In this document: one piece after another, positions 2,670 to 18,979 of the stretch
Layout of the letters: every line of letters starts with the position of its first letter
Numbering within the stretch: the first letter of the stretch is position 1
Assembly: GCA_947258675.1 (NCBI GenBank)
Contig: CAMYJP010000074.1
Span: 1-18,979 of the forward strand
DNA: 18,979 nucleotides
Source: an uncultured Desulfobulbaceae bacterium
GTDB lineage: Bacteria > Desulfobacterota > Desulfobulbia > Desulfobulbales > BM004
Direction: 5' to 3'
Made by a program: the position numbers and the translations under genes
Notes under the pieces: model-generated
What the model was told of the DNA's origin: nothing
Databases searched by the model: none
Seen by the model: the letters and a program-made list of their open reading frames with translations, nothing else

Positions 2670-3010
2670 TTAATTAGGCATCTACCTCATTTTTTTTGTA
2701 AATAAAATATCAGGTCGAAAAAAAGTAATAATTGTAATTTCAACTATAAAGAGGCTTCCGACTAGGTATGGCAATGAATATAGATTCATTATTTCCTTGA
2801 TTTTGCCTGCCACTTTGTAGTAACCTCTTGACCTCGGATGCCACAATGTAGTAATTTGTGCAGCACTTTTTTTGTAAATGGCTAGAAAGTGGGTTTATTA
2901 CGGATCAAAAAAGAAGGCTTGGCTGCAGTCGGTAACGTTTGAACCAGTGGAAAAAATAAAAGAATTTCCACATCAATAGACCTGAAACTGTTCAATGAGG
3001 GGGGGATCGT
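2670..3010 (+). promoter_or_regulatory. Non-coding leader of the sulfur block with paired 16-bp direct repeats
   Basis: There is no gene in this 340-bp interval. TGCCACTTTGTAGTAA (2808-2823) and TGCCACAATGTAGTAA (2839-2854) are direct repeats 31 bp apart, three helical turns, which suits a pair of regulator sites. TTGACC at 2828-2833, between the repeats, is followed 17 bp later by GTAATT, a weak sigma-70 -10. If this is the promoter, the second repeat lies in the spacer and over the -10, a repressor-like position. The YedE gene has an excellent ribosome site, GAGGGGGG, just before its ATG. Confidence 0.4.
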
Positions 3011-4462: not shown

Positions 4463-4500
4463 GTACGCATAACAAACTACTTATTTAGGAGGAATGAATC

Positions 4501-4755
4501 ATGGCAGAAATTAAATTTGAAAAAACAGGTGACGGAAACTACTTACTTGATGTTTGTGGTTATGTCTGTCCGCATCCGCAATTGTATACGAAGAAATCTC
4601 TTGAGAAGATTGAAGAAGGGGATGTAATTGATGTTGTCTTTGATAATCCTTCATCAAAGGAAACTATTGTCCAGATGTGTGAAGCAGCAGGAAATGAAAT
4701 TATAGAAGAGAAGACCGAAGGTGGAAAGCTGTATTTAAAAATAGAAAAAGGCTAA
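4501..4755 (+). CDS. tusA: TusA/SirA-family sulfur carrier protein
   Basis: 84 residues with the family motif CPHP (C23) after a first strand (YLLDVCGYVC), then KKSLEKIEEGD and a C-terminal strand. TusA-family proteins carry a persulfide on the motif cysteine and hand sulfur to other enzymes. Next to a YedE permease the paralog TsuB acts in thiosulfate uptake, so this copy is more likely a transporter partner than the tRNA-thiolation TusA. An extra cysteine, C19, precedes the motif. The ribosome site is a perfect AGGAGG eight bases before the ATG. A strong terminator follows, so the permease and carrier form a two-gene operon. Confidence 0.9.
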   Translation: MAEIKFEKTGDGNYLLDVCGYVCPHPQLYTKKSLEKIEEGDVIDVVFDNPSSKETIVQMCEAAGNEIIEEKTEGGKLYLKIEKG

Positions 4756-4780
4756 CGAGCTGTTTTTCGCTCACAAAGAG

Positions 4781-4819
4781 GCCGGGTTTGGCATTAGTAG
4801 TGTCAACCCGGGGTTTTTT
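4781..4819 (+). terminator. Rho-independent terminator after tusA
   Basis: CCGGGTTTGG... pairs with ...TCAACCCGG around a short A/T loop and is followed by GGTTTTTTG. It lies 25 bp after the tusA stop and closes the yedE-tusA operon. Confidence 0.85.
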
Positions 4820-4955
4820 GACTACGTAATAATTCGGTAGAAATTTTTCTTTCATAATAGTATGTTAACTCCCGTGTTCAGCGTTAAACGGGAAAATGGT
4901 AAACGGTAAACGAAAATTTTTTCAAAGCAGTTTTTGACCAAACGAGGGGGGAAAT

Positions 4956-5285
4956 ATGAAGACACCATTTGTTGTTATATTATTAATTTTGATTGGCGTT
5001 TTAGGATTTGTTATCGGATACAGCATTGCACCGACTGATGTAAGTGTTGTCAGGCATGGTGCCCCCCAGGCATCTTCCGGCGGTGGCGGACAGGCGTCCG
5101 GCGGCTATGGCGCGGACTCCGGTGGCTATGGCGCGGATTCCGGTGGCTATGGTGCTGCCCCAGCGGCTGGTGGATATGGCGCTCCTGCAGCTGGTGGTTA
5201 CGGTGCTCCCGCAGCTGGTGGTTATGGTGCTCCTGCAGCTGGTGGTTATGGCGCTCCCGCAGTTGGTGGGTATGGAGCGAAATAA
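4956..5285 (+). CDS. Membrane-anchored Gly/Tyr-rich tandem-repeat protein
   Basis: 109 residues. The N-terminal ~25 form one hydrophobic helix (VVILLILIGVLGFVIGY) with little positive charge, so it is probably a signal anchor with the tail outside. The remainder is low complexity: eight GGYGA units, first as GGYGADS, then GGYGAPAA, ending GGYGAK. The repeat tail is about 60 residues and contains only G, Y, A, P, D, S and V plus the last K. Such Gly/Tyr repeats suit a flexible, self-associating or adhesive filament-like segment; this is inference, and I recognise no named family. The ribosome site is GAGGGGGG. It sits between the tusA terminator and the Usp gene and probably shares a transcript with the latter. 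Confidence 0.8.
   Translation: MKTPFVVILLILIGVLGFVIGYSIAPTDVSVVRHGAPQASSGGGGQASGGYGADSGGYGADSGGYGAAPAAGGYGAPAAGGYGAPAAGGYGAPAAGGYGAPAVGGYGAK
5100..5282 (+). repeat. In-frame tandem repeats (21- and 24-bp units)
   Basis: The repeats encode GGYGADS (21-bp units, the first copies) and GGYGAPAA (24-bp units, the later copies). Neighbouring units differ mostly at third positions, for example GGTGGTTACGGTGCT against GGTGGTTATGGTGCT, so they are old enough to have drifted synonymously while keeping the protein sequence. Copy number is expected to vary between strains. Confidence 0.85.
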
Positions 5286-5327
5286 TGTTTATAAATTCTC
5301 CGTAAACTAAAAAGAGAGGGGGATATT

Positions 5328-5792
5328 ATGAAAAACATTTTAATTGCCGTTGACGATACTAAAGCCACGAAAGAGATATTTTCCAAATGTACAAATATAT
5401 GCAAATGCATGGCGCCGGATGTCATTAATCTTCTTTATGTAGAAAAGTACGAGGGTGCTTCACTCATGGATGATATGCTCGGCGAAGCGGAGCTCTCTAC
5501 CCTGAAAGAGGTTCTTGAAGGAACGGAATATAAAGAAGCGCTTGATGAAAAAGCCAATAAAGTCTTGCAATACTATAAAAGCATGCTGGAAAAGAGTCCA
5601 CCGGTTCCAAATGTAAAGACCATACTCAAATCAGGTCATCCGGCTGAAGAAATTTTGAAAACAGCAGAAGAAAATGATGTGGATATGATTATGATCGGTT
5701 CGACTGGTGTGAAAGGTTCCCAGCTGTTAATGCGCAGTGTCAGCAGAGAGGTTGTTTTCAATGCTGATTGCCCGGTGCTTGTAGTGAAGTAA
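5328..5792 (+). CDS. Universal stress protein (UspA fold), degenerate ATP motif
   Basis: 154 residues, single Usp domain: N-terminal strand MKNILIAVDDT, then KTILKSGHPAEEILKTAEENDVDMIMIGSTG and the C-terminal CPVLVVK. ATP-binding Usps carry G-2x-G-9x-G(S/T). Here the first two glycines (GSTG) are present, but the third is replaced in LLMRSVS by Arg, so ATP binding is doubtful and the protein may be of the non-nucleotide UspA type. Cysteines at CTNICKC near residues 21-27 are unusual and could be thiol-active. The AGAGAGGGGG ribosome site is strong. It lies 42 bp after the Gly/Tyr repeat gene and ends before a strong terminator. The neighbourhood suggests a stress or sulfur-state role, which is inference. 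Confidence 0.88.
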   Translation: MKNILIAVDDTKATKEIFSKCTNICKCMAPDVINLLYVEKYEGASLMDDMLGEAELSTLKEVLEGTEYKEALDEKANKVLQYYKSMLEKSPPVPNVKTILKSGHPAEEILKTAEENDVDMIMIGSTGVKGSQLLMRSVSREVVFNADCPVLVVK

Positions 5793-8894: not shown

Positions 8895-9260
8895 CTAGAG
8901 TAGACGATAATTGGGACGTTTTGCAGGAGAAGTTGGTCTAAGAATATTGGGGTGACAATAGAAACAATCTCCTTTAAGAAAAAAAGATATACAGATACTG
9001 AATGGTTCAAAATCATCTTTCTGCAGTGAAACATGAAAAGAGTTATCCCATAATTTTCTGATACTTTCCAGTTCGGATCTTTGCCAGTCAATGTGACAGG
9101 CCAAAGAGCTTGGGTGGCATTCTATGCATCCCTGGATATTTATTTTAGGACACTCTTCAATATTACGCTGAATTTGGGCGGCGGCGAGAAAGTTGTTGGC
9201 AACAAAGATAAGTGATATCGCTACCGAGAAAAAACAGAACAGACTTTTATATCCTCTCAT
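8895..9260 (-). CDS. Small exported diheme c-type cytochrome (predicted)
   Basis: 121 residues. A signal peptide (about 1-28, LFCFFSVAISLIFVANNFLAAA) is followed by a short mature domain with two CxxCH heme-attachment motifs: CIECH (45-49) and CFYCH (99-103). Additional cysteines (C37, C55, C90) and two histidines (H56, H76) could be ligands or disulfide partners. Both hemes would be attached in the periplasm and serve electron transfer. The spacing (54 residues) and small size match no named cytochrome family that I recognise. The start overlaps the end of the lipoprotein gene by 14 bp, so the two are co-translated. The ribosome site is weak, fitting coupling. Last gene of the left module. 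Confidence 0.72.
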   Translation of the reverse strand: MRGYKSLFCFFSVAISLIFVANNFLAAAQIQRNIEECPKINIQGCIECHPSSLACHIDWQRSELESIRKLWDNSFHVSLQKDDFEPFSICISFFLKGDCFYCHPNILRPTSPAKRPNYRLL

Positions 9261-9822
9261 TTTCTGGAATTGTATCTAGTTCATTTTTTGGAATCGCATC
9301 TAGAAATGCTGTTATATAATATCCTGGAATTATAATAATTTCTTCTCCTCCTTTTCCACTGATAGTTATGTTCATGCCAGTTTCAGTATGCTCTTCTAAA
9401 TATTCCTGGTTTGTGTTGATAATTATGTGCTCGTCATAGTGTGTAGTGCTGCCGCATCCTGTGCGGTTTCCCATTTCTCTGGAAAGGACCAGCACGTTGA
9501 GTTCTTTGCCGTTTGAATCAAAAGCGGTGTCATAGTTTCTCCAAGTATCACTCTTATAATAGGCTAATATGTAAATTTGATAGTGTGGTACCACAAGACG
9601 TGCCGGCTTGATTGATCGGAGAAAGACATTTGTTTCAAGAAGCTTATTCGGAATGGGAGGGCCAGTAACCTCTGTTTGGCTCGTGAGACCATCGGTGTTT
9701 TCTTCACACAATGCGGCAATATATTCGTATTGATTTGAAGTGGATGGGCTCACATCTTTCTGTGCAGCGCAACCAGCCATTACTAAAGGTACTATAAGTA
9801 AAAAAAAGATTTTATTTTTCAT
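9247..9822 (-). CDS. Lipoprotein of unknown function
   Basis: 191 residues. A lipoprotein signal is clear: MKNKIFFLLIVPLVMAGC with lipobox VMAGC, so the mature protein begins at an acylated Cys and is membrane-tethered. The remainder is a mixed beta-rich domain with a central YYKSDTWRNYDTAFDSNG region and a CG-containing segment (GCGSTTHYDEH). I recognise no family. The start at 9822 is chosen because AGAAGGA lies 8 bases upstream; in-frame ATGs at 9831 and 9873 have no correct ribosome site. The last residues contain an 8-residue imperfect duplication (IPKNELD / IPENER) from a 24-bp repeat near 9266-9302. It overlaps the downstream diheme cytochrome and follows the 164-aa gene after 5 bp, so it is part of the same operon. 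Confidence 0.75.
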   Translation of the reverse strand: MKNKIFFLLIVPLVMAGCAAQKDVSPSTSNQYEYIAALCEENTDGLTSQTEVTGPPIPNKLLETNVFLRSIKPARLVVPHYQIYILAYYKSDTWRNYDTAFDSNGKELNVLVLSREMGNRTGCGSTTHYDEHIIINTNQEYLEEHTETGMNITISGKGGEEIIIIPGYYITAFLDAIPKNELDTIPENERI

Positions 9823-9827
9823 TGCTT

Positions 9828-10322
9828 TCATCCTTCTGAGTATAAATACAAATGTTTTTGTGTATAAATACAAATGTTTTTGCGGAGTTGGAGCTTGATC
9901 TCATCATTCGGAATTAATTGTTGATCAGCTATGGAGATTTCTTCTCCGGATCGACAAGCAACCTGGCGGAAACTACTGCCAAACTTGGCCCGTCGATAAG
10001 CTTGATGAATACCGCAGAAGGCGGAAACCCAGGCAGATCCCTGCTGATTAGCATGATCGGCAAGAATAGATAGCTCCTCTGGTAACTTGCGACAATTATT
10101 TGTATATAAAGCCAATGTTGAAGCAAACGGACAAATTTCCTGCACAAAAACACCGTTTCGCACCTCATTTACTGTTTTTTCCAAATCATTTGTGCAGCTG
10201 GGATCTTTAGCCATCTGTTCGCCAACAAGCCGTAAAAGGCCTATTGCTCCAACGTCGAACAGAAGATAGGATGCCTTGATTAACTCAACGAGACTTATCT
10301 GTCCAGGTGTGTCATTTCCCAT
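9828..10322 (-). CDS. Cys-rich cytoplasmic protein of unknown function
   Basis: 164 residues, no signal peptide or membrane segment. The body is largely helical. Cysteines recur (in PSCTND, EICPFAS, NNCRKLP, SAFCGIH, VACRSG, NICIY). The segment CPFASTLALYTNNCRKLPEEL followed by an acidic ADHANQQGSAWVSAFCGIHQ looks conserved-domain-like, but I cannot name it. A V4R-like or ATC-hydrolase-like fold was considered and is unproven. The start at 10322 is used because GGAGG lies 8 bases upstream; ATG 10337 sits directly on the Shine-Dalgarno. The C-terminal tail is altered by a 22-bp duplication (9840-9883). It is followed after 5 bp by the lipoprotein gene. Confidence 0.65.
   Translation of the reverse strand: MGNDTPGQISLVELIKASYLLFDVGAIGLLRLVGEQMAKDPSCTNDLEKTVNEVRNGVFVQEICPFASTLALYTNNCRKLPEELSILADHANQQGSAWVSAFCGIHQAYRRAKFGSSFRQVACRSGEEISIADQQLIPNDEIKLQLRKNICIYTQKHLYLYSEG
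9840..9883. repeat. 22-bp perfect tandem duplication (frame-shifting)
   Basis: GTATAAATACAAATGTTTTT plus two bases occurs twice, at 9840-9861 and 9862-9883. The unit is not a multiple of three, so the duplication extended and rewrote the C-terminus of the 164-aa protein. Confidence 0.9.
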
Positions 10323-10384
10323 AGAATCATCCTCCAAAAAAGCTGTAAGGTCATGCAGCTGAACTTCGCTGCATGGGATTGAAT

Positions 10385-10615
10385 TTACTTGAAGACATTT
10401 ACATCAAACACGGCGGCATCTTCCTTTCTATCCTTGTCGATTATAATGTATACTTCCCAGGCTCCTTCCCTGGAAAAATTAAGTTTTTCTATTATATACT
10501 GCCTGTTGCCCAACTCGGTTACAACAGGCAACTCTGTTGTGTCATGTTCAGAGGTTGGCATCCATGGGATCACTGCCATATCAAGTTTTTTTTGAACCGG
10601 CTTCCATCCCTCCAT
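10385..10615 (-). CDS. Short YtkA-like protein lacking the signal peptide
   Basis: 76 residues that match the C-terminal half of the exported YtkA-like protein at 15877-16281: PVQKKLDMAVIPWM against PVNKKLDLEIIPWM, then KLNFSREGAWEVYIIIDKD against RLNFPQKGAWEIYIRIDKD, ending KEDAAVFDV in both. The signal peptide and first strands are missing, and no remnant of them is seen upstream. A good ribosome site (AGAGAGGTG) stands before the ATG, so it may still be translated, as a cytosolic fragment unlikely to fold as the parent does. It lies downstream of tatA, the same order as in the right-hand module, so it looks like the degraded partner of a duplicated pair. Could be annotated as pseudogene. 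Confidence 0.6.
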   Translation of the reverse strand: MEGWKPVQKKLDMAVIPWMPTSEHDTTELPVVTELGNRQYIIEKLNFSREGAWEVYIIIDKDRKEDAAVFDVNVFK

Positions 10616-10748
10616 TTATCACCTCTCTGTTAGAACTAAATCTGTTCAGTTGGTGAGAGTCAGTTAATCAGCATAATTGGGTAGTTACTTATTGTGGGTA
10701 AAAATCTGGACTCAGTCAGTTGGGAAAATGTTGCAAGGATCTCCTCAA

Positions 10749-10949
10749 CTATGCTTTTGTTTCTGTCTCTCCTTCGATAATTCTATTTCTCATGGTTTTA
10801 TCAGTGTCATCAACTTCCCGCAGACCCTTTTTGAAGGAAGTTATGCCCTTACCGAGACCAGCGCCAATTTCAGGCAGTTTTTTGCCACCGAAAACCAGTA
10901 CGGCTATGCCAAAAATTACCATTAGTTCTGTTGTTCCCAAGCCAAACAT
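10749..10949 (-). CDS. tatA: Twin-arginine translocase subunit TatA/TatE (copy 1)
   Basis: 66 residues. It has the N-terminal FGLGTTELMVIFGIAVLVFGGKKLP hinge region, then the amphipathic helix (LPEIGAGLGKGITSFKKGL) and a short charged tail. TatA oligomers form the protein-conducting part of the Tat machine that exports folded, cofactor-bearing proteins. Nearly identical to the copy at 16579-16785 over the first ~43 residues and divergent in the tail, as expected of a duplication. No tatB or tatC is in the window, and no twin-arginine signal is evident among the neighbours. AGGAGG stands before the ATG. Confidence 0.92.
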   Translation of the reverse strand: MFGLGTTELMVIFGIAVLVFGGKKLPEIGAGLGKGITSFKKGLREVDDTDKTMRNRIIEGETETKA

Positions 10950-10984
10950 AGCAAACCTCCTTTTATGTAATTGCTAAGGAAAGA

Positions 10985-11032
10985 CTACATGCCTTCCCGT
11001 AAAATCCATTAACGTAACCACCGGCCCGACTC
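10985..11032 (-). pseudogene. Remnant of the C-terminus of a 175-aa-family gene
   Basis: On the minus strand the last residues WILREGM-stop are identical to those of the intact gene at 16883-17410, with WLR just before matching the intact WLK. A stop codon (TAA, 11009-11011) precedes the W, and four residues of the intact copy are missing. The remnant lies directly upstream of tatA, exactly as the intact gene does in the right module. Upstream of it no further homology is seen; the interval 11033-11191 holds a GC-rich hairpin (CCGGCCCG 11021-11028 with CGGGCCGG 11038-11045) and otherwise nothing recognisable. Confidence 0.65.
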
Positions 11033-11191
11033 GCGGCCGGGCCGGCAGCTATGCCTTACTACTACCAGCAGCAGGAGAAGAACATGTGATAGCCTGGGAG
11101 GGGGTCTATTAGGCACATTTGCCACTGCCAGAGTAGGAAGTGCTTTTATTTCAAATTGTTTAATTGAATTCATTCGCTTGTTAAATGTGTC

Positions 11192-11374
11192 TAGGGCTTG
11201 CGCAAAAATAATTTCACATTTTCGCATATCGTCTTTGGTCATTTTTGGCCGAGCGTCATTCGCAAAATCCTCGACGTAGCGCTGCTACGCCTGTGGTTTG
11301 GCTCAATCAGCCCAGCCAAATCTAATCCAAATCGAGACGCGAATTCTGCGAACATATTTTTGCACCAACCCTTA
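11192..11374. repeat. TIR element, second type (palindromic, imperfect ends)
   Basis: The ~183-bp stretch starts AGGGCTTGCGCAAAAATA and ends with the inverse of AGGGTTGGTGCAAAAATA. A 15-bp stem-loop CGTAGC-GCT-GCTACG sits at 11275-11289, exactly at the element centre, so the whole element can fold as one long imperfect hairpin. No gene inside. It lies between the 175-aa remnant and a YtkA-like gene whose stop codon is 2 bp away. Confidence 0.7.
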
Positions 11375-11376
11375 AA

Positions 11377-11841
11377 TCACTGCATAGTATGACTTTTTGT
11401 TTTATTATGACCCATCATTTTTTTTTCCCCCGAGCCCGTTACTTTGACTTCATGTATCGCAGTATCCTCTATATTCTCTCTTGAGATCCTGATATGGATC
11501 TGCCATGGACCGGGCATGCTAAAAGTCACATTTTCAACTAGATATTTACCTTCCGATAATTGTTTCACCACAGATTCTACAAGGGTGCCATGTTCATGAA
11601 TAGCCATCCAGGGCACAACCTCAATGGATAATTTGTCTTTTATGATTTTTTTCGTTTTACCGTCATAAACCACCATTTTAAATGTGTTACCTCCTACCAC
11701 AGGCTTTTCTTTCATTTCTATATCAAGGAAGAACGCGCCATTGTCGGATGGAGTTTCATTTCCACTGAAGCCAAAGAGGAAAAACGTAAACACCAACAAA
11801 ATGCAACACCCCAACAGTCTTTTTTCTACCAATATTTTCAT
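11377..11841 (-). CDS. Exported YtkA-like domain protein (left module)
   Basis: 154 residues. A signal peptide or N-terminal anchor (LLGCCILLVFTFFLFGFSG) is followed by one beta-sandwich domain. The YtkA hallmark segment is present: IEVVPWMAIHEHGTL (W-M-x-x-H-x-H-G), then GKYLVENVTFSMPGPWQIHIRISRE. The His residues of WMAIHEHG are candidate metal ligands; the right-module paralog has WMRSGQHD. A C-terminal tail rich in K, H and M (KKMMGHNKTKSHTMQ) is unique to this copy and could bind metal. The AGGAGG ribosome site is clear. It directly follows the PD40 propeller gene and precedes a TIR element. Confidence 0.78.
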   Translation of the reverse strand: MKILVEKRLLGCCILLVFTFFLFGFSGNETPSDNGAFFLDIEMKEKPVVGGNTFKMVVYDGKTKKIIKDKLSIEVVPWMAIHEHGTLVESVVKQLSEGKYLVENVTFSMPGPWQIHIRISRENIEDTAIHEVKVTGSGEKKMMGHNKTKSHTMQ

Positions 11842-11891
11842 CCTTTTTTCCTCCTGTTGATAATGGTTAGTGGGGTGGCAAATGCAGTTGC

Positions 11892-12872
11892 CTATCTTAC
11901 TGATATTCCGGTGGTTTCTTCGTAATAGTCTAGCATGGTGTCGGTATGGAGCCAGTAGAGCGTGTAGCGGTTTGGAAAGTCATAGCCGGCCGGCCGGTCT
12001 CGGCCTGAAGACCATACCCATTTTTTGCCGTCGTCGAAAAAACGACCGCAGCCTTCACTCTGCCCACCGGGCGAATTCCAGCCAGCCATTATCCGCGGCC
12101 CAACCCACTCTTCTTTATTTTCATCCCACCGGACCAAAAATTCCTGGTGATGCTGGCTGTCATGGTCTGTGACAATGCCAATCTTGTTGCCGAGGCCCGG
12201 CACAAAACGGCACTGATTCTGGCCTGTGTTTATTGCCGTCCCGGGACTTACCGGTTCCGACCATTGGCCATTGGCCAGTTTCTTGAACATCACAATATTC
12301 ATGCCTTTCATGCCCTTCATCGGTCTGGTCGTGGCCAAATAGGCAACTTCCTGGCCATTCGGATTAGTGGTGCTAACAAAACAGTGGTCCATTTGAGGGC
12401 TATTGATAGGGGCGCCCATGTTCTGCACTTCGCCCCATTCTTCGGAGCCTGGTTTCTTTTTGACTACCCAGATATCCCTGCTTCCCAGGCCTCCTGGCCG
12501 CATACTCATGAAATGCAGGGTTCTGCCGTCGGCTGAAATCATTGGCTCAGTGTCCATATATTTGGAGTTAATCGGCGCTGGAAGCAGGGAAGGCTCTGAC
12601 CATTTTCCGTTTGACAGGTGAGAGACATAAATATCCCGATCACCAGGCCTGTTCGGATCAGGATCGCCAATTGGCGCAGCAAACTGGGCAAAATAAATAG
12701 TTTTCCCGTCGGCGGTAATTGAAGGTTCATAGGTGCCATGCGGTGTGTTCGGAGGGGAGGCAAAGGGAAAGGGTTTGGTTATGTCATACGCCACGGCCAT
12801 CCCGCTATTGAACGCCCATAAGGTGGTGCAAAGAAATAATGCACATAAGCTTTTGAATAATTGGCTTTTCAT
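11892..12872 (-). CDS. Exported PD40/TolB-type beta-propeller protein
   Basis: 326 residues. A signal peptide (LCALFLCTTLWAFNSGMAVAYD) is followed by repeated PD40 blades: EPSITADGKTIYFAQ, EPMISADGRTLHFMSMRP with GSRDIWVVKK, and later PNGQEVAYLAT and DDGKKWVWSSGRDR. Propellers of this kind scaffold or bind partners in the periplasm; the partner is unknown. Conserved WSEPS / INS motifs mark the blade ends. ATG 12872 is preferred over 12878 because the AGGAGA site then has proper spacing. The gene sits between a TIR element upstream and the YtkA-like gene downstream (50 bp). No homologue of it occurs in the right-hand module. Confidence 0.82.
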   Translation of the reverse strand: MKSQLFKSLCALFLCTTLWAFNSGMAVAYDITKPFPFASPPNTPHGTYEPSITADGKTIYFAQFAAPIGDPDPNRPGDRDIYVSHLSNGKWSEPSLLPAPINSKYMDTEPMISADGRTLHFMSMRPGGLGSRDIWVVKKKPGSEEWGEVQNMGAPINSPQMDHCFVSTTNPNGQEVAYLATTRPMKGMKGMNIVMFKKLANGQWSEPVSPGTAINTGQNQCRFVPGLGNKIGIVTDHDSQHHQEFLVRWDENKEEWVGPRIMAGWNSPGGQSEGCGRFFDDGKKWVWSSGRDRPAGYDFPNRYTLYWLHTDTMLDYYEETTGISVR

Positions 12873-12914
12873 TGTCATTCTCCTTTTTTTTCGTTTTTTT
12901 GGCCTGATTACACT

Positions 12915-13096
12915 CTAGCCCGCATTTCTCACAAGCGATCTGCTACGAAACAGAAAAGCACGGCGTCTACTGCGTTACGGTTGAAAAATATTCTCAACAT
13001 ACTGCTAGTATGCCTGCGAGTATTTTCCTTCGCGTGCCTTGTATCCACAGCACTTTCCGGTTTCTCGCGACGATCTTTGTGAGAAATGCGGGCTAG
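12915..13096. repeat. TIR element, third type with perfect 20-bp ends
   Basis: 182 bp bounded by perfect inverted repeats CTAGCCCGCATTTCTCACAA. A central CATACT-GCT-AGTATG (12998-13012) marks the exact midpoint, and the arms show further inverted similarity (GAAAAATATTCTCAA against GGAAAATACTCGCAG). No coding content. It lies between the stop of family member A (6 bp away) and the leader of the PD40 gene, so it may also act as a structured intergenic RNA. Likely a MITE mobilised by a transposase elsewhere in the genome. Confidence 0.85.
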
Positions 13097-13101
13097 CGTA
13101 G

Positions 13102-13797
13102 TTATTCCATCATTCCTGTTTGCCTGTTCCATTTCCTCCATGCAGTTACTGGGATATATTCCGGAACTTGGGTCTTGCCCCATTCCATCGTCTCCCGTAT
13201 TTTTTCCCTACTGATGTAATAGGGCTTGACAAAACAGAAGGTCGGAGCCTTCCGCTCCACAACTTCACCCTCCTTGAAGCCGCTTTCCGGCAATACGTTC
13301 AGCCTGATAACCACCTTCAGTTGCATGTAATACCCCATTTCATCATTCATGAGGTAAGGGATATCGCTATCAATGGTAAACAGCTTTTTTATGGGTATAC
13401 TTAATTCTTCGACCTTGTACATCTGCTCAACTGGCTCGTCCGGCTTTTCTATCAACGGCAGTTCAATCCAGGACACTTTGCTGGTGGCCATGTAAACCTG
13501 TGCTTCGGGATGCGAAACATAAACAGGTTCATCGGCCACGTTGTCGATCCTCAGTATCATCTCATATTTCTCAGTATTTTCGATGTCCGGGGTGTAGACA
13601 ATGTCGCGAATGTCAGCGGCAATGTAATAATTGGCCTGTTTCTGCAGCTTGAACATCCTTTCCGCTTTATCCTTGAGGATAGCCTCCTCTCTCATCGTCA
13701 ACCCGTAGTCAATCACGAGTAAAATAACCAGCAGCCCTATGAGGCCCCCCAAGACGGCGAACACCTGTTTAATTCTTTTTTTTATGGTTGGTTTCAT
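13102..13797 (-). CDS. Single-pass membrane protein, unknown A/B/C family (member A)
   Basis: 231 residues. A basic N-terminus and one hydrophobic helix (about 13-30, VFAVLGGLIGLLVILLVI) anchor a ~190-residue extracytoplasmic domain. Family landmarks shared with members B and C: DYG just after the helix, ADIRD (61-65), RIDNVADEPVYVSHPE (83-98), a central WIELP, KLFTIDSDIPY, LPESGFKEGEVVER, and a C-terminal VKPYYIS plus EWGKTQVPEYIP. Closely similar to C (18408-) and more distantly to B. I recognise no family; the alternation of hydrophobic strands suggests a beta-sandwich. The ribosome site GAGGAGA is good. A TIR element separates it from the downstream PD40 gene. Confidence 0.75.
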   Translation of the reverse strand: MKPTIKKRIKQVFAVLGGLIGLLVILLVIDYGLTMREEAILKDKAERMFKLQKQANYYIAADIRDIVYTPDIENTEKYEMILRIDNVADEPVYVSHPEAQVYMATSKVSWIELPLIEKPDEPVEQMYKVEELSIPIKKLFTIDSDIPYLMNDEMGYYMQLKVVIRLNVLPESGFKEGEVVERKAPTFCFVKPYYISREKIRETMEWGKTQVPEYIPVTAWRKWNRQTGMME

Positions 13798-13846
13798 CTC
13801 GTCTCCTCTTTCAGGTGATTGCGCACCGTTTTAGTTATCGCGAAAC

Positions 13847-14052
13847 CCACCACTTCTAGTGGTGGACCCGGATAGGTTCTACCGGTCCGGCGAATAGTTT
13901 TATGTTCATTTTCTTTGCTTGCCCAAAGAAAATGAACCAAAAGAAAGGGCACCCGTGTCACTTGGTCCTTCGGACTTCCCTGTGCTCCTCGAATCTGCTG
14001 GGAGTTTGAAAACTCGCTTCGCTCAGACAGTTCAAACTCTTTTTTCAGCAGC
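13847..14052. repeat. Foldback-rich intergenic repeat region
   Basis: Three perfect hairpins lie in series: CCACCACT-TCT-AGTGGTGG (13847-13865), GTTCATTTTCTTTG with CAAAGAAAATGAAC (13904-13937), and CTGCTG/AGTTTGAA with TTCAAACT/CAGCAG (13995-14052). Sequence of this type recurs widely in proteobacterial genomes and is often mis-called as short proteins. The first hairpin resembles the subterminal hairpins recognised by IS200/IS605-type transposases. A decayed or non-autonomous element is likely; none of its reading frames is convincing. Confidence 0.5.
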
Positions 14053-14610
14053 TTCTGTGGGGCTCGGCTGCGTGCCAATGGGAAAAACCGAAAAATTTAA
14101 ATATTCTAACGCCCCCTTTTAAGGGGCTCGAAGTCTTCGCTTATCTCCTGAGGCCACCCGCACTGAGGGTGGAGACTCACTGAAGTATCAATAACAAATA
14201 GTCTGTTTTTTATAACTACCACCTTTTTGGCTTTTTCCACCCAGGTAGGAGTGCGGTTCTCTGCGATTAGGTTTTCTTATACCCCCCCTAAGATGTTCAA
14301 GAATTATGCCGAAGCTGATCAACTTGGCAACAAGCTGATTTTGCGAGAATAATGAAATATCTTTGCGTACTGCCAACCGGCAGAGTGTTTCAATTTGAAA
14401 AGTTGATGTTGCAGAATGAAAAATCTACAACACAAAATGCATATTTGGGATGATACGTTGGGCTGGAATTGAAAAGAAGGAAAGGTAGGGAAATTCTTTA
14501 ATTAAAAAAACTGGTAACAAATTATTCATCCCCAGGTCTTCCAAACAGTTGTTCAGGTCCCGGGAAAATAATTCCACCGAAGAGAACAGATTTCTTTTCC
14601 AGCAGTGGGG
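14053..14610. other. Gene-free interval between FKBP gene and foldback region
   Basis: No convincing gene was found. Short hairpins occur at about 14111-14127 (GCCCC/GGGGC) and 14152-14172 (CCACCC/GGGTGG). The rest is T/A-rich sequence without clear promoter or terminator. It separates the FKBP gene (end of the right module) from member A (start of the left module), so it should contain the left module's promoter, which I could not pinpoint. Confidence 0.45.
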
Positions 14611-15258
14611 TTAGACGATATCAAGGAGTTCCACTTCAAAAATAAGCATTGCACCCGGGGGAATAACCCCAACGCTGCGAGAACCATAGGCAAGATCCGA
14701 AGGAATAAAAAGTTTGTACTTACTGCCCACATTCATAAGTTGCAGAGCTTCAGTCCAGCCGGGAATAACCTGCTCTACAGTGAACGTAGCCGGTTCGTCA
14801 CGTTCAACAGAGCTGTCAAAAACAGTTCCATCAAGAAGGGTTCCGGTGTAGTGCACCTTAACAGTATCCTTGGCAGTAGGTTTTGTTCCATTACTCTCCT
14901 CAATAACCAGATACTGAAGGCCGGAGTCGGTGACTTTTACTCCATTTACATCTTTATTCTTTTCTAGAAAAGCCTTCTGTTCCTCAGCATTTTTTCCTAC
15001 CGATTCTTCCACGGCTTTTTTTTCAAGATTCTGCATCTCTTCCTGGAGAGAACGCAGGCATTCAGCAAACTCTTCCGGTGAAATGATAGGGGCATTCCCT
15101 TCAAAAACATCTTTGACGCCCTGTATTACAAGCTGTTTGTCCAGTTTTTTAGGTATTGGCAGAATTGACTGAGCAAAATTTAAACCCAGTGAATAGCTGA
15201 TATTTAAACCCAGTGAATAGCTGATTTTTTCAATGTCTGTTGTTAACTTGATTTTCAT
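14611..15258 (-). CDS. FKBP-type peptidyl-prolyl cis-trans isomerase (FklB/Mip-like)
   Basis: 215 residues. Residues ~1-100 are the helical N-terminal FKBP_N dimerisation domain; ~125-215 the catalytic FKBP fold with VKVHYTGTLLDGTVFDSS, VIPGWTEAL, LAYGSRS and the closing MLIFEVELLDI, all usual active-site elements. No signal peptide is visible, so it is probably cytoplasmic like FklB. The N-terminal segment carries a perfect in-frame duplication (ISYSLGLN twice) caused by a 24-bp repeat at 15179-15225, which is absent from typical family members. The AGGAG ribosome site is good. A structured intergenic region separates it from the 131-aa gene upstream. Confidence 0.93.
   Translation of the reverse strand: MKIKLTTDIEKISYSLGLNISYSLGLNFAQSILPIPKKLDKQLVIQGVKDVFEGNAPIISPEEFAECLRSLQEEMQNLEKKAVEESVGKNAEEQKAFLEKNKDVNGVKVTDSGLQYLVIEESNGTKPTAKDTVKVHYTGTLLDGTVFDSSVERDEPATFTVEQVIPGWTEALQLMNVGSKYKLFIPSDLAYGSRSVGVIPPGAMLIFEVELLDIV
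15179..15225. repeat. In-frame 24-bp tandem duplication inside the FKBP gene
   Basis: TTTAAACCCAGTGAATAGCT plus three bases occurs at 15179-15201 and again at 15203-15225 (period 24). It adds eight residues to the N-terminal helix of the isomerase. Confidence 0.93.
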
Positions 15259-15303
15259 GATTCTCCTTTGGATTGAATGACTAATCCGGGAAACCTGGAA
15301 ATA

Positions 15304-15411
15304 AGTGCCTTAACAGCGGTCTGCAACGTATCAAGAATATAGACTTTTTTGAGTTTTCTCGGAGTCTTTGCTTACCTGTTTTTTGTTGCAGAATTCCAGG
15401 GGTAAGGCACT
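15304..15411. other. Nested inverted repeats between the 131-aa and FKBP genes
   Basis: AGTGCCTTA (15304-15312) pairs with TAAGGCACT (15403-15411). Inside it TGCAAC pairs with GTTGCA (15322-15327, 15385-15390), and inside that AGACT pairs with AGTCT (15341-15345, 15363-15367). The order is properly nested. It may be a structured leader, attenuator or small mobile-element relic. Confidence 0.5.
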
Positions 15412-15442
15412 AAGAGTGGGGAGGTCATGGGTGCTAAGGTTT

Positions 15443-15838
15443 TCAGAACACCCCAGGCATAGTTTGATTCTCAGAGGGAACTTCTTTTTCCAAATGTAAG
15501 GCAATAAGCCGCTCATGTGCGGGAGAAATCTTTTTATAGGTTTTCACTGAGGCATACGGCAGATATTTTTTCCCGAGAACATCTTTCAGGTTGAAAGGTA
15601 CAATTAATTTCGCGTCATCACATATATATAAATATCGCAGTTTGCCATTATTGGCCGGCCAGTCAGTTAACCGCATCGTATAGTGAATCTGTTTTTCGCT
15701 AGATTTGCAGTCCTGTTTATTTTTACATATCAAAACAAGTTCTCCTGGCTTCCAGTCACTGGGAATACTGGGGAAAGCATGCAGTTGGTGCTGAATTACA
15801 GTGTCTATTTCGATGTCAGATGTTTTCAAAAGATACAT
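15443..15838 (-). CDS. Small protein of unknown function (131 aa)
   Basis: 131 residues, soluble, no signal peptide. Strand-rich core: WKPGELVLICKNK, KQIHYTMRLTDW, KLRYLYICDDAKLIVPF, then a K/Y-rich helix-containing tail (KTYKKISPAHERLIALHLEKE). The W-x-PGE-hydrophobic pattern recalls EVE/PUA-like folds, but I cannot confirm this. The GGGAGA ribosome site is acceptable. It follows the YtkA-like gene by 38 bp and lies in the same operon; its role there is unknown. Confidence 0.65.
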   Translation of the reverse strand: MYLLKTSDIEIDTVIQHQLHAFPSIPSDWKPGELVLICKNKQDCKSSEKQIHYTMRLTDWPANNGKLRYLYICDDAKLIVPFNLKDVLGKKYLPYASVKTYKKISPAHERLIALHLEKEVPSENQTMPGVF

Positions 15839-15876
15839 TTTCTTTCTCCCGTTAATTTGCCTTACGTGAAGTCGAA

Positions 15877-16281
15877 TTATTCAAACACCTCCACATCAAA
15901 AACTGCGGCATCTTCTTTTTTGTCTTTATCTATCCTGATATAAATCTCCCAGGCGCCTTTCTGTGGAAAATTAAGTCGTTCAACAAGATATTGTCCGTTG
16001 TTCAAATACTTCACATTCGGCAGTTCAGAGGCATCATGTTGACCTGAACGCATCCAGGGGATAATTTCCAGATCGAGCTTTTTATTGACCGGCTTTTTGG
16101 ATTTTTTATGCAGAAATGTGAACTTGAGATTGTGATATCCAACCTTAAAAACTTTCTCTTCAGATTCCACGTTGAATAAATAGTGTCCCTGCTCGGTTCC
16201 AATGCCTTTCTTTGTGAAACCAAATAGAAAAAACACCAAAAATAGCACTGTTATCACTTTGATATATTTCACCAGGTTCAT
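15877..16281 (-). CDS. Exported YtkA-like domain protein (right module)
   Basis: 134 residues. An N-terminal hydrophobic segment (IKVITVLFLVFFLFGF) is a signal peptide or anchor, followed by one YtkA-like beta domain: YHNLKFTFLHKKSKKP, LEIIPWMRSGQHD, GQYLVERLNFPQKGAWEIYIRI and the closing DAAVFDVEVFE. YtkA-like domains are exported beta-sandwiches often found near copper- or electron-transport genes; no enzymatic role is known to me. Its ribosome site GAGGAGG is excellent. It follows tatA with a TIR element between, and its signal-less relative (10385-10615) has the same position in the left module. Confidence 0.8.
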   Translation of the reverse strand: MNLVKYIKVITVLFLVFFLFGFTKKGIGTEQGHYLFNVESEEKVFKVGYHNLKFTFLHKKSKKPVNKKLDLEIIPWMRSGQHDASELPNVKYLNNGQYLVERLNFPQKGAWEIYIRIDKDKKEDAAVFDVEVFE

Positions 16282-16303
16282 AGAGCCTCCTCTCTAGTTG
16301 ACT

Positions 16304-16500
16304 AGCTAGTTTCCATCCGGAAACGGTCCTTTTGAAAAATCTCTGCGTCGATCTTCAGAATTGCTTGTGCGACGTATTCATATACGACTCCGTGCAATTC
16401 GTTGATATCCTTGATCTTTTTCAAAATTGGCTGTTTCCGAACTGGAAACAACTTTGTGTAGCCATCCGTAAAAAACTGCGTTTCCGGATGGACACTAGCT
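16304..16500. repeat. TIR-bounded miniature element, copy 2
   Basis: 197 bp whose ends are AGCTAGTTTCCATCCGGAAA and an inverted GCTAGTGTCCATCCGGAAAC, a ~20-bp near-perfect TIR. TA bases flank both ends (GAC-TA / TA-CAA), consistent with a TA target duplication as made by IS630/Tc1-type transposases. An inner inverted repeat GTTTCCGAACTGGAAAC lies at about 16433-16449. Same element as 2483-2669. A minus-strand frame (ending KDRFRMETS) stays open in both copies. Confidence 0.82.
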
Positions 16501-16578
16501 ACAATAATATAATTTCTAATTCGGCTAATTAATAATCACAAAATCATCCCGTCTATTCTTGGCCCTGGACGCTTCATC

Positions 16579-16785
16579 CTATCCACGCAGGAGAGGCTTT
16601 TCCTCCTCTGTGACTACATCCTTGGTGATAGATGTGGAGGTATCTTCAACCTCTTTCAACCCTTTCTTAAAAGATGTAATCCCCTTCCCCAGACCGGCAC
16701 CTATCTCCGGCAGTTTCTTGCCACCAAAGATGAGAAAGGCTATCCCCAAAATTACCATTAATTCAGTGGTTCCTAAACCAAACAT
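16579..16785 (-). CDS. tatA: Twin-arginine translocase subunit TatA/TatE (copy 2)
   Basis: 68 residues. Membrane helix FGLGTTELMVILGIAFLIFGG, then hinge and amphipathic helix KKLPEIGAGLGKGITSFKKGL and an acidic tail (EEEKPLLRG). It differs from copy 1 by a few conservative changes up to residue ~50. The ribosome site AGGAGG is perfect. It follows the 175-aa exported gene by 97 bp. A dedicated TatA within an operon could serve a specialised folded substrate, but none with a twin-arginine signal is seen here. Confidence 0.93.
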   Translation of the reverse strand: MFGLGTTELMVILGIAFLIFGGKKLPEIGAGLGKGITSFKKGLKEVEDTSTSITKDVVTEEEKPLLRG

Positions 16786-16882
16786 AATTTCCTCCTTTAT
16801 CAGTTTATTTTCTCAAAGTGGCCGGCAGTCAGTGCGGATTTTCGAGACTGACCGCTGCAGGTGTTTTCATCTAACCTTGTGC

Positions 16883-17410
16883 CTACATGCCCTCCCTCAG
16901 AATCCACTGGCTAGTGCCTAGTTTAAGCCAGTATGCGGTTTCATCAGAGATGCTTGCCTGTTTTTTATCCGATCCCATCACCAAGACCAGCTGGTGTCTG
17001 AGTTGGAGATTGACCTCATTATCAGAGTTGACATACAGGTTTGGGATAGAAAGTGGAATTTTTATCAGTACGATTTGGGAATAACTCTCATGAGGCTCCA
17101 GCGAAATCGCTTTTTTGAGAGGAACCCCATCGTCCTCTAACTCGGTCCAGCGCCCGATAACGTCATTCTGGATATGAAAATTCTTTTCATAGACTAACAG
17201 GGAAATTTCCCTGTCCGACATGTTATTTAAAACGGTGGTTATTTTATATTTATCATCGCCGAGATAAGATATATCATCAATGATAAGCCTCATTGATCCG
17301 CCATTTCCTGATGCGGCCTGGACTGTTGCGACACGCAATGCCAGCAGAATACAGAGGGCGATCAAACGGATGGTCGTCCAGGTCCGGTAACGGTTTGAGG
17401 CAATTGTCAT
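16883..17410 (-). CDS. Exported divergent relative of the A/B/C family (175 aa)
   Basis: 175 residues. The N-terminal signal (IRLIALCILLALRVATVQA, cleavage near residue 32) precedes a beta-rich domain. Its pattern VLNNMSDREISLLVYEKNF then GRWTELEDD lines up with RIDNVADEPVYVSHPE then WIELP of family member A, and its ending (DETAYWLKLG) with the VKPYYIS region, so I infer a distant relative without the membrane anchor. There is no conserved Cys or His cluster. A remnant of a second copy (WILREGM) occurs at 10985. The ribosome site AGGAGA lies 9 bases before the ATG; member B ends only 25 bp upstream. Confidence 0.72.
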   Translation of the reverse strand: MTIASNRYRTWTTIRLIALCILLALRVATVQAASGNGGSMRLIIDDISYLGDDKYKITTVLNNMSDREISLLVYEKNFHIQNDVIGRWTELEDDGVPLKKAISLEPHESYSQIVLIKIPLSIPNLYVNSDNEVNLQLRHQLVLVMGSDKKQASISDETAYWLKLGTSQWILREGM

Positions 17411-17435
17411 TATTTTGATCTCCTGTTAAATATGT

Positions 17436-18155
17436 TCAATGCGGGGGCATAGGTATCACGATCGGTACCTTGTTCTCTTCCCATGTCATTTCTTTTAAGA
17501 TCGCCTGGTCGCTAATGAAGAACGGTTTAAGATAGACATAGACATCGGTGTAGCGCTCCATCACCTCCTCTTCGTCAAAAACGCTCTCCGGCAGTACGTA
17601 CACGGAGATGCGGAACCTGACGTGCATGTAATAGGGAACCTGGTAGGGCGTATATTCAATATTTTTATCGATGCTGATAATCTTGCTGTAAAGGTATTGA
17701 CCGGGATCAAGAACATAAAGCTGCGTCTTGGTAGCTCCTTGCGGATCGTGGACCGGCACTTCCTGCCAATAGAATTTTGTCTGCACATAGGCCTTTACTT
17801 CAGGGTAGGTGACATAGATAACCTCGTCCGCGACATTATCGATCTTGATCACTGCTTCGTATTTTTCCGGCTCCCCTTTTATGTCCCAGGCATCATGAAT
17901 GTCCGGCAAAATCATGTAATTGGCCATTTTTGACAGCCGTTCTTTTTTTGCAACAATTGCTTTTAAAACAGCCTCTTGTCTTTTTCCAACACCATAGTCA
18001 ATCAGTATCAGCAGGGCGATAACTATAAGTGCTGCCGACACAATTTTTCTCTTCCGGAAGAAGGCAAACAGACTTCGGCAGAACCCCGGTAAAGATCGTA
18101 GCAGTACTAAAATGTAGAGTGGAAAAGTCAGAATTTTTTTTAGCAATTGTATCAT
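17436..18155 (-). CDS. Membrane protein, unknown A/B/C family (member B)
   Basis: 239 residues. Two hydrophobic stretches at the N-terminus (ILTFPLYILVLLRSLPGF and VSAALIVIALLILIDYG) precede a ~180-residue extracytoplasmic domain. It shares with A and C: DYG after the second helix, LPDIHDAWDI, VIKIDNVADEVIYVTYPE, SIDKNIEYTP, VYVLPESVFDEEEVMERY and YLKPFFIS. It lacks the E-K-P-x-EPVEQMYKVEE block of A and C and has its own PHDPQGATKTQLYVLDPG instead. The start at 18155 has an AGGG site; an ATG at 18176 would add seven residues with none. Member C is upstream; the 175-aa gene is 25 bp downstream. Confidence 0.72.
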   Translation of the reverse strand: MIQLLKKILTFPLYILVLLRSLPGFCRSLFAFFRKRKIVSAALIVIALLILIDYGVGKRQEAVLKAIVAKKERLSKMANYMILPDIHDAWDIKGEPEKYEAVIKIDNVADEVIYVTYPEVKAYVQTKFYWQEVPVHDPQGATKTQLYVLDPGQYLYSKIISIDKNIEYTPYQVPYYMHVRFRISVYVLPESVFDEEEVMERYTDVYVYLKPFFISDQAILKEMTWEENKVPIVIPMPPH

Positions 18156-18211
18156 TTGGATACACCCTGGATACATCGAGTACTGTCAGTGTTTTTCCAT
18201 AAATAGTCTTT

Positions 18212-18300
18212 TCGGAGTCTCCCAGGTTCGCTTATCCGCCCGCCCTCTGCGTTATGTAAAAAAAAACACCTCAGTGGTAGGTGAAGGAATGAGACTCCGA
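18212..18300. other. Inverted repeat between members B and C
   Basis: TCGGAGTCTC (18212-18221) pairs with GAGACTCCGA (18291-18300). An inner CACCT/AGGTG pair (18267-18283) is nested. The 230-bp gap between C and B holds no gene. A CGGAGTCT motif also occurs in the hairpin at 15361-15368. Confidence 0.45.
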
Positions 18301-18407
18301 TATCGCAAATGTACACCTCAAGGGCACTTCCTATGGGGCGCCTGTGGATATTTTTTTTCGCATGCCTTAAACTCGATAAAAAATCCTCATTTATGGACGG
18401 GCACTAA

Positions 18408-18979
18408 TTATTCAGGCCTATTCTTTTCCCTGTTCCATTTTCTAAATGCAGTTATAGGCATATAGATGGGAACTTTGGTCTCACCCCATTCCATCACCTC
18501 CCGCATTTTTTGTCTGCTGATATAATAGGGCTTGACAAAAATGACTGCCGGACCCTTGCGCTCAACAATTTCACCTTCCTTAAAGCCGCTCTCCGGCATA
18601 ATATTCATCCTGATCACCGTTTTAAGACGCATGTAATACCCCATCTTATTGATGGTGTAAGGGATATCTCTATCAATGGTTAACAGCTTTTTAATTATCA
18701 AACTTTTTTCTTCGACCTTGTACATCTGCTCAACTGGTTCGCCCGGCTTTTCTTTAAACGGTACTTCGATCCAGGACGCTTTACCTGTGGCCATGTAGGC
18801 CTGTAACTCCGGATGGGAAACATAAACAGGTTCATCGGCGATGTTGTCGATTCTGACCTTCACTTCATATTCATCGGTGTTTTCGATGTTCGGGGTGTAG
18901 ACCACATCGCGAATGTCGGCGCTAATGTAATAGAAGGCCTGTTTCTGCAACTGCAACATCCTGTCCGCTTTTTCCTTGA
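18408..18979 (-). CDS. Unknown A/B/C family, member C (5' end off window)
   Basis: The frame is open to the right edge, reading KEKADRM before the first internal ATG (18959), which matches KDKAERM of member A, so the gene continues beyond 18979 and would carry a membrane helix there. The ~189 visible residues closely match A: ADIRDVVYTPNIENTDEYEVKVRIDNIADEPVYVSHPE, WIEVPFKEKPGEPVEQMYKVEE, TIDRDIPYTINKMGYYM, MPESGFKEGEIVERK and VKPYYISRQKMREVMEWGETKVP. C is the paralog nearest to A. It heads the right-hand module as far as visible. Confidence 0.75.
   Translation of the reverse strand, partial: KEKADRMLQLQKQAFYYISADIRDVVYTPNIENTDEYEVKVRIDNIADEPVYVSHPELQAYMATGKASWIEVPFKEKPGEPVEQMYKVEEKSLIIKKLLTIDRDIPYTINKMGYYMRLKTVIRMNIMPESGFKEGEIVERKGPAVIFVKPYYISRQKMREVMEWGETKVPIYMPITAFRKWNREKNRPE

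What the first reader, a model, noticed from the sequence alone, without database searches (positions are those of the whole stretch)
8895..18979. Two duplicated TatA/YtkA modules with an unknown membrane-protein family
Right set: C, B, 175-aa gene, tatA, YtkA-like. Left set: A, PD40, YtkA-like, 175-aa remnant, tatA, short YtkA-like. The order '175-aa gene, tatA, YtkA-like' is seen twice (once as wreckage), and A and C are close paralogs. This suggests a co-inherited, possibly undescribed envelope system that includes the anchored family, the 175-aa protein, YtkA-like and TatA, plus (left only) a lipoprotein and diheme cytochrome. Function is not known.
Basis: partly seen in the sequence, partly recalled or inferred. 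Interest (0 to 1): 0.72.

Follow-up and report, generated by a model that had tools for sequence, protein, structure and literature searches.

The report
Accessory cassette of thiocyanate-oxidising copper enzyme
The odd membrane proteins in this window belong to a gene cassette that, in other bacteria, sits next to the gene for thiocyanate dehydrogenase, a copper enzyme that breaks down thiocyanate; they probably help build or support that enzyme outside the cell membrane, and their family had no name or function in the databases searched.

Summary
A, B and C are one family without a Pfam or NCBIfam name; the window carries two sets, one cut by the window edge, one decayed. In 230 genomes of one Nitrospirota class, thiocyanate dehydrogenase (TcDH) occurs in 12, the A/B family in 10, and both in 9, always on one contig within about 10 kb (Fisher p 5e-13); all four mismatches lie at contig ends. 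Of 72,556 plasmid records only two, both Methylocella tundrae, hold either protein, and they hold both. The loci run TcDH, FtsX/MacB-type permeases and ATPases, then A, B, YtkA and p175 in varying order. The window's diheme cytochrome matches one encoded just before TcDH in two genomes. B-type proteins end in IPMPPH (118 of 120 listed); p175 is a remote relative of A/B. I infer a membrane-anchored periplasmic machine that assembles or supports TcDH's copper site. It is kept where TcDH lacks a Tat motif, so it probably works outside the membrane. TcDH itself is not in the window; I predict it upstream of C, beyond base 18979. PD40 and the lipoprotein match nothing in 17 related stretches. One divergent TcDH-like protein lacks the cassette. 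The mechanism is inferred.

The parts
18408..18977 (-). C: A/C-type member of the TcDH-associated anchored Ig-like family, 5' end cut by the window edge
   Evidence: 189 aa open; 71% identical to A; 99% identical to metagenome protein P0005; in L001-L006 the gene just upstream of the A/C-type gene is the second ABC ATPase, and in L001 and L003-L006 TcDH starts about 7 kb upstream
17436..18176 (-). B: B-type member, N-terminal helices, periplasmic beta-sandwich, C-terminal IPMPPH
   Evidence: AlphaFold model pLDDT 87.4, helix 43-86 then beta-sandwich; IPMPPH ending in 118 of the 120 B-type homologues listed
16883..17410 (-). p175: exported Ig-like protein ending in REGM, remote homologue of A/B
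   Evidence: hhalign against A/B E 1.3e-6 over 135 columns; REGM ending 9 of 9; in the same loci L002-L007, L034-L036, L069
16579..16785 (-). tatA of the right set
   Evidence: PF02416 E 1.1e-16
15877..16281 (-). YtkA-like periplasmic protein of the right set
   Evidence: PF13115 E 2.2e-11; invariant W76 and W111, near-invariant M77 and H82 in 12 sequences
13102..13797 (-). A: intact paralogue of C in the left set
   Evidence: 71% identical to C; dN/dS 0.31; groups with P0002-P0004 (100/97) while C groups with P0005-P0009 (94/93, drawn open), so both types persist in several metagenome lineages
11377..11841 (-). YtkA-like protein of the left set
   Evidence: PF13115 E 7.7e-10
10985..11008 (-). 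3' end of a lost p175 gene (WILREGM-stop) between YtkA and tatA of the left set
   Evidence: 20 of 24 nt match to the end of p175; weak on its own, supported by frame and place
10749..10949 (-). tatA of the left set
   Evidence: PF02416 E 1.9e-16; 74% identical to the right tatA
10385..10615 (-). 5'-truncated YtkA-like gene of the left set
   Evidence: PF13115 E 1.2e-5; matches residues 63-133 of the right YtkA, 65% identity
8895..9260 (-). small diheme (two CxxCH) cytochrome c, relative of the cytochrome encoded directly before TcDH
   Evidence: matches in 2 of 15 genomes, both just upstream of TcDH (G070, G269)
11892..12878 (-). PD40 propeller protein lying inside the left set; not shown to belong
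   Evidence: PF07676 E 2.7e-15; no match in 17 related stretches
9247..9873 (-). lipoprotein-like gene beside the left set; not shown to belong
   Evidence: no Pfam cut-off met; no match in 17 related stretches

Best explanation
A, B, C and p175 are the accessory, probably maturation, proteins of a thiocyanate dehydrogenase (TcDH) system. SHOWN by comparison: the family travels with TcDH, with FtsX/MacB-type ABC genes, YtkA and a two-component system; B carries a near-invariant IPMPPH tail; p175 is related to A/B; the window's diheme cytochrome is related to one encoded next to TcDH. INFERRED: the window's organism has TcDH and the ABC genes just beyond base 18979. TcDH is exported (by Tat, in other lineages probably by Sec). 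A, B and p175 stand on the periplasmic face as Ig-like domains, A and B on a membrane helix, next to the FtsX-type permeases. ATP-driven movement of the permeases, with YtkA (and a NosL-domain protein where present) handling copper, loads or opens the three-copper site of TcDH. B's Met/His/C-terminal tail is the likely copper-passing element. The diheme cytochrome takes electrons from TcDH (SCN- to OCN- and S0). The left set is a decayed duplicate that kept A, YtkA, tatA and the cytochrome.
For: Both proteins in 9 of 12 TcDH genomes and 9 of 10 A/B genomes among 230, same contig, p 5e-13. Among 72,556 plasmid records the two with TcDH are the two with B (one species), in the order TcDH, permease, ATPase, B. 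The neighbour is TcDH by sequence (E 6.6e-172 to 8q9x, 2.5e-161 to 5f75), with His96, 97, 167, 346, 402 and 493 (L006 numbering) kept in 14 of 14. IPMPPH in 118 of 120, also in Methylocella. NosL domain in L006 (E 2.7e-14), with matches in L003 and L036 and a fragment in L005; NosL is described as a dedicated copper chaperone for another copper enzyme (PMC6530538, title and abstract start). Five TcDHs with the ABC genes downstream lack the Tat motif; the cassette is on the same contig in three of them (L034, L035, L069), on another contig of the genome in one (G070) and cut off in one (L070). Window cytochrome next to TcDH in 2 of 2 hits. In T. thiocyanoxidans a hypothetical protein with one N-terminal membrane helix, right after the ABC genes, rises with TcDH on thiocyanate (PMC5744179, passages).
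Confidence: 0.6

Rival explanations
1. The cassette belongs to TcDH but handles its products or substrate: the FtsX/MacB-type ABC proteins with A, B and p175 move or shed sulfur, polysulfide, cyanate or thiocyanate at the membrane, rather than building the copper site.
For: The ATPases are nearest to LolD and MacB models, whose systems move substrates (recalled); TcDH makes elemental sulfur (PMC9456337, passages).
Against: YtkA and, where present, NosL hint at copper, though weakly. No adaptor or outer-membrane gene was noticed between TcDH and the cassette; this was not searched for by model, and Methylocella has an RND adaptor gene about 7 kb further on.
Confidence: 0.2
2. A, B and p175 are a membrane dock: they hold TcDH and its cytochrome at the inner membrane for electron transfer.
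For: B has N-terminal helices, one long, and a beta-sandwich domain; the diheme cytochrome is linked.
Against: Does not explain the ABC genes or the IPMPPH tail; the cytochrome was found in only 2 of 15 genomes.
Confidence: 0.12
3. The genes are a general envelope or copper-stress set that merely lies near TcDH in some genomes.
For: TatA and YtkA are common proteins (recalled); tatA is in the stretches read of only 6 of 15 genomes.
Against: A/B was found in 10 of 230 genomes and in 9 of these beside TcDH; the same pairing occurs on an alphaproteobacterial plasmid.
Confidence: 0.04
4. The proteins sense thiocyanate or copper and signal to the two-component system of the locus.
For: Kinase and regulator genes lie in 13 of 17 related stretches; a sigma-54 promoter motif lies within 400 nt before TcDH in 6 of 15 loci against 47 of 3000 random stretches.
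Against: The kinase of L006 has a membrane-associated region of its own (MASE3-like, below Pfam's cut-off); three related proteins plus several ABC genes are more than a sensor needs.
Confidence: 0.04

Closest known systems
TcDH gene clusters of Thioalkalivibrio (Berben et al. 2017, PMC5328954 and PMC5744179)
   Different: There copCD and fccAB flank the cluster; YtkA, NosL and p175 are not mentioned in the passages read. I could not obtain the Thioalkalivibrio hypothetical protein to test whether it is B. The window has two family sets and no TcDH inside its bounds.
Nitrous oxide reductase maturation (NosDFY-NosL)
   Same: An exported copper enzyme with a multinuclear site, an ABC complex and a NosL copper chaperone (PMC6530538 title and abstract start; the rest recalled)
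   Different: The permeases here are FtsX/MacB type; A/B/p175 have no counterpart there that I know of; TcDH lacks NosZ's cupredoxin domain (recalled)
Type VII ABC systems (MacB, LolCDE, FtsEX, YbbAP)
   Same: The permeases of L006 carry FtsX and MacB_PCD domains and its ATPases are nearest to LolD, MacB and FtsE or DevA models
   Different: No NCBIfam cut-off is met among the rows shown; partnered with TcDH and the A/B family

Membership tests
TcDH gene cluster (as in Thioalkalivibrio) | A TcDH gene in the cluster | tested here: inconclusive
   Not in the window: TcDH tblastn finds nothing. Present in 12 of 230 genomes of one class. The window ends inside C, upstream of which TcDH is expected.
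TcDH gene cluster (as in Thioalkalivibrio) | ABC permease and ATPase genes next to TcDH | tested here: inconclusive
   In relatives: three permeases and two ATPases in L001 and L003-L007, two of each in L034, L035, L069, one of each in Methylocella, partial in cut contigs (L037, L038, L070), none in L039. In the window: no convincing match (one 28-aa ATPase fragment, E 0.009).
TcDH gene cluster (as in Thioalkalivibrio) | Single-helix anchored hypothetical protein after the ABC genes | tested here: inconclusive
Thiocyanate dehydrogenase (the enzyme in the related loci) | Sequence match over the propeller and conserved histidines | tested here: met
   E 2.5e-161 to 5f75 for L006; six histidines in 14 of 14; His492 in 13; His447 (aligned with the residue that is Gln in 8yu5) in 12 of 14. 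Applies to the relatives, not to the window; doubtful for L039 and L040.
YtkA (PF13115) | Score over Pfam's gathering cut-off | tested here: met
   44.6, 39.7 and 26.3 bits against 25.9
TatA (PF02416) | Score over Pfam's gathering cut-off | tested here: met
   60.2 and 59.4 bits against 21
DUF1775 / YcnI-like (PF07987) | Score over Pfam's gathering cut-off | tested here: not met
   A and C reach 14.0 and 14.4 bits against 25
Nos maturation system | NosD, NosF, NosY beside nosZ | not tested
   Not searched for by model; the ORF lists read were not scanned for them

The most novel reading that the evidence does not exclude
A dedicated periplasmic machine that assembles a three-copper enzyme site: two membrane-anchored and one exported Ig-like paralogues, driven by FtsX-type ABC motors, with a near-invariant C-terminal IPMPPH tail that hands copper to apo-TcDH. 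It would be a cuproenzyme maturation system distinct from NosDFYL, Cop and Cus, working for both Tat- and Sec-exported TcDH and reaching Nitrospirota, Alphaproteobacteria and probably Desulfobacterota.
Probability: 0.4. Interest if true: 0.8.

Novelty: new variant of a known kind. Interest (0 to 1): 0.62.

Why it matters
How copper is acquired and put into TcDH was said to remain to be determined in the 2017 transcriptome paper (PMC5744179, passage). This work singles out a small set of conserved unknown proteins, one with an almost invariant C-terminal motif, that accompany TcDH in 9 of 9 genomes of one class in which the contig allows a look. That makes the question testable with single-gene removals and a tail deletion. 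The loci in Nitrospirota, and probably Desulfobacterota, suggest thiocyanate oxidation in lineages outside the Gammaproteobacteria studied in the papers I saw. TcDH lineages without a Tat motif argue that copper can be loaded after export, against the reasoning that Tat export means loading in the cytoplasm (PMC6504805, passage).

Tried and rejected
No whole genome is held for the window, so it could not be searched beyond base 18979. The first genome-contig scan with A alone gave no relative; the second, with an alignment, gave seven. Viral contigs gave none. Pfam, NCBIfam and fold comparisons gave no function for A, B, C or p175. DUF1775 and Big_14 were rejected as sub-threshold. A copper metallochaperone chain (3zja) appears in p175's Foldseek list at E 5.9e-4 but with TM 0.27 for the model, and was not used. 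Relatedness of YtkA to A/B or p175 was tested and not found (hhalign E 0.075 and 0.019). The sigma-54 motif has one one-mismatch site in the window, as chance predicts (mean 1.22). NosL counts were not informative, since NosL is common in relatives (15 of 21). The paper search combining TcDH and NosL found none; the one on maturation, copper insertion, FtsX and MacB listed no TcDH paper among the 10 shown of 1,496. The PNAS paper on the TcDH active site is not held, so the roles of its residues are recalled. I did not obtain Thioalkalivibrio sequences, nor the contigs behind P0005 or P0008. The third protein search went to B-type homologues, so TcDH proteins on contigs of equal length could not be looked up.
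Full report
OBSERVATION. A (13102-13797), B (17436-18176) and C (18408-18977, cut by the window end) are one family: A against C 71% over 190 aa, A against B 39% over 189 aa. None meets a Pfam or NCBIfam cut-off. TatA and YtkA are certain. The left set is decayed: p175 survives as 24 nt at 10985-11008 (WILREGM-stop; weak by DNA alone) and one YtkA is 5'-truncated. A itself is intact, with dN/dS 0.31 against C. In a tree of 52 rows A groups with P0002-P0004 (100/97), and C with P0005 (100/98) and, less surely, P0006-P0009 (94/93), so both types persist in several metagenome lineages; whether single genomes carry both, as the window does, is not known for those.

WHAT TRAVELS WITH THE FAMILY. 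A search with A found 49 proteins at E 1e-3, the window's own included, from 335 candidates in 5.8 billion. A scan of 84,980 species genomes with an alignment gave seven loci, all Nitrospirota assemblies (L001-L007). tblastn of all reference proteins on 17 stretches (replacing the ORF lists) gives these orders. L001 and L003-L006: TcDH, permease, ATPase, permease, permease, ATPase, A, B, YtkA, p175 (not seen in L001), a NosL-domain gene (L003, L006; a fragment in L005), a two-CW protein, then regulator and kinase on the other strand. L002 is the same from the second ATPase on, where its contig begins. L007: TcDH, permease, ATPase, permease, permease, ATPase, B, YtkA, p175, A/C-type, TatA, kinase, regulator. 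L034, L035 and L069: kinase, regulator, TcDH, permease, ATPase, permease, ATPase, p175, A, B, and YtkA (not seen in L034). The permeases of L006 are FtsX/MacB type and its ATPases nearest to LolD. Over the 15 genomes behind these stretches YtkA is seen in 12, p175 in 10 and TatA in 6. PD40, the lipoprotein, the 169-aa protein, the FKBP and the 131-aa protein of the window match nothing in the 17.

THE NEIGHBOUR IS THIOCYANATE DEHYDROGENASE. The 513-aa protein of L006 matches TcDH structures: 8q9x E 6.6e-172, 5f75 E 2.5e-161. In 14 TcDH-like proteins from the loci read, His96, 97, 167, 346, 402 and 493 (L006 numbering) are present in 14; His492 in 13; and His447 in 12, with Gln in L039 (G226) and L040 (Methylocella). 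In one search His447 aligns with a histidine of 5f75 that is glutamine in the chain of 8yu5; that it is catalytic is recalled.

CO-OCCURRENCE. In 230 genomes of the class of G006, TcDH (profile A3, E 1e-20) is in 12 and the A/B family (profile A4, E 1e-5) in 10; 9 have both, each time on one contig within about 10 kb; Fisher p 5.1e-13. The mismatches: G176 (TcDH 1.2 kb from the contig end), G305 (contig ends inside the second ATPase), G304 (contig starts inside TcDH) and G002 (A/B at a contig end; no TcDH found in that genome). In an overlapping sample of 295 genomes of the phylum TcDH is in 6, A/B in 5 and both in 4; in G070 the two lie on different contigs that each break off between them. 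The one exception not explained by contig ends is G226, a divergent TcDH-like protein (43% identity) in a genome without A/B, with no ABC or cassette gene on the 16 kb read. Outside the phylum, tblastn over 72,556 plasmid records found TcDH (limit 1e-5) in two Methylocella tundrae records only, and window B (limit 1e-2) in the same two only (E 2e-7); as one species this counts once. The order there is TcDH, permease, ATPase, B. Of the 48 non-window A-type proteins, 13 share their longest-contig length with a B-type protein among the 120 listed (count), which suggests the same contigs.

THE WINDOW'S CYTOCHROME. The two-CxxCH protein at 8895-9260 has a relative in 2 of 15 genomes searched, G070 and G269 (E 2.7e-7 and 4.1e-7). 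In both it is encoded directly before TcDH.

EXPORT. Seven of the 14 TcDH-like proteins carry a twin-arginine motif (L001, L003-L007, L038). Five with ABC genes downstream (L034, L035, L037, L069, L070) do not; by eye four of their starts look like ordinary Sec signals, and L070's is longer. L039 and L040 also lack the motif but their starts are uncertain. The cassette lies on the same contig in three of the five (L034, L035, L069), on another contig of the same genome in one (G070) and is cut off in one (L070). Since it is kept with both kinds of TcDH, I infer that it acts on the periplasmic side.

REGULATION. Kinase and regulator genes lie in 13 of the 17 stretches. A -24/-12 motif with at most one mismatch lies within 400 nt before TcDH in 6 of 15 loci, against 47 of 3000 random stretches. 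In the window the motif is no commoner than chance; the start of the C operon is not in it.

LITERATURE. In Thioalkalivibrio the TcDH cluster has two permease/ATPase pairs, hypothetical protein(s), a sigma-54 two-component system and tatA (PMC5328954, passages). On thiocyanate the first hypothetical protein after the ABC genes, with one N-terminal membrane helix, rises with TcDH, and the mechanism of copper incorporation is said to remain to be determined (PMC5744179, passages). I predict that protein to be a B homologue; I could not test it. A tcdh gene is mentioned as transcribed in one bioreactor genome (PMC8906906, passages). The whole-library search for 'thiocyanate dehydrogenase' lists 17 papers. 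I saw passages of five of them, and none of those passages names the A/B/p175 family. I make no wider claim of novelty in print.

TAXON. The window's YeeE-like protein has its best named relatives in 'Deltaproteobacteria' (74% and, partial, 81%), against 68-69% for named Nitrospirota and one Planctomycetota; closer ones (up to 86%) are unnamed. The host is probably Desulfobacterota; this is not certain.

CONCLUSION. That the cassette assembles or supports the copper site is the best-supported mechanism but is inferred (about 0.5-0.6), by analogy with NosL-assisted assembly of another copper centre (PMC6530538, title and abstract start). Product handling and docking remain possible. PD40, the lipoprotein and the 169-aa protein are not shown to belong.

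Noticed in passing
window 2483-2672 and 16307-16497: A repeated element of about 190 nt in the same orientation at two places (local score 280); the right copy lies between tatA and YtkA of the right set and its ends read like inverted repeats (TTTCCATCCGG-like), as in a MITE.
   Followed up: partly
window 12912-13099: Inverted-repeat element (arms about 47 nt) between A and the PD40 gene, possibly another small mobile element that helped break up the left set.
   Followed up: partly
window 15178-15225: Perfect 24-nt tandem duplication near the start of the FKBP-type isomerase gene, giving a repeated ISYSLGLN.
   Followed up: no
window 3011-5792: YeeE/YedE, TusA-like, a glycine/tyrosine (GGYGA) repeat protein and a universal stress protein in a row; yedE and tusA are parts of the 'YTD' cluster discussed for sulfur disproportionation (PMC12998232, passages); I identified no DsrE or other YTD gene here but did not search for them by model.
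   Followed up: partly
L040:5818-7659 and L039:3393-5120: TcDH-like proteins of Methylocella tundrae and of G226 have Gln where the other 12 have His447; they may have another activity.
   Followed up: partly
L034, L035, L037, L069, L070: TcDH homologues without a Tat motif in otherwise similar loci; probably a Sec-exported branch of TcDH.
   Followed up: partly
L003, L004, L005, L006, L035, L038 upstream of TcDH: Sigma-54 -24/-12 motif with at most one mismatch within 400 nt before TcDH, 6 of 15 loci against 47 of 3000 random stretches.
   Followed up: partly
L004:15181-15933 and L036:5557-6381: Two 250-274 aa proteins with a Tat-like start and one CxxCH near the TcDH-type loci of two genomes; function not examined.
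   Followed up: no
window 9828-10337: 169-aa cysteine-containing protein with no Pfam or NCBIfam match, whose 3' end overlaps a short tandem repeat at the start of the lipoprotein gene.
   Followed up: no
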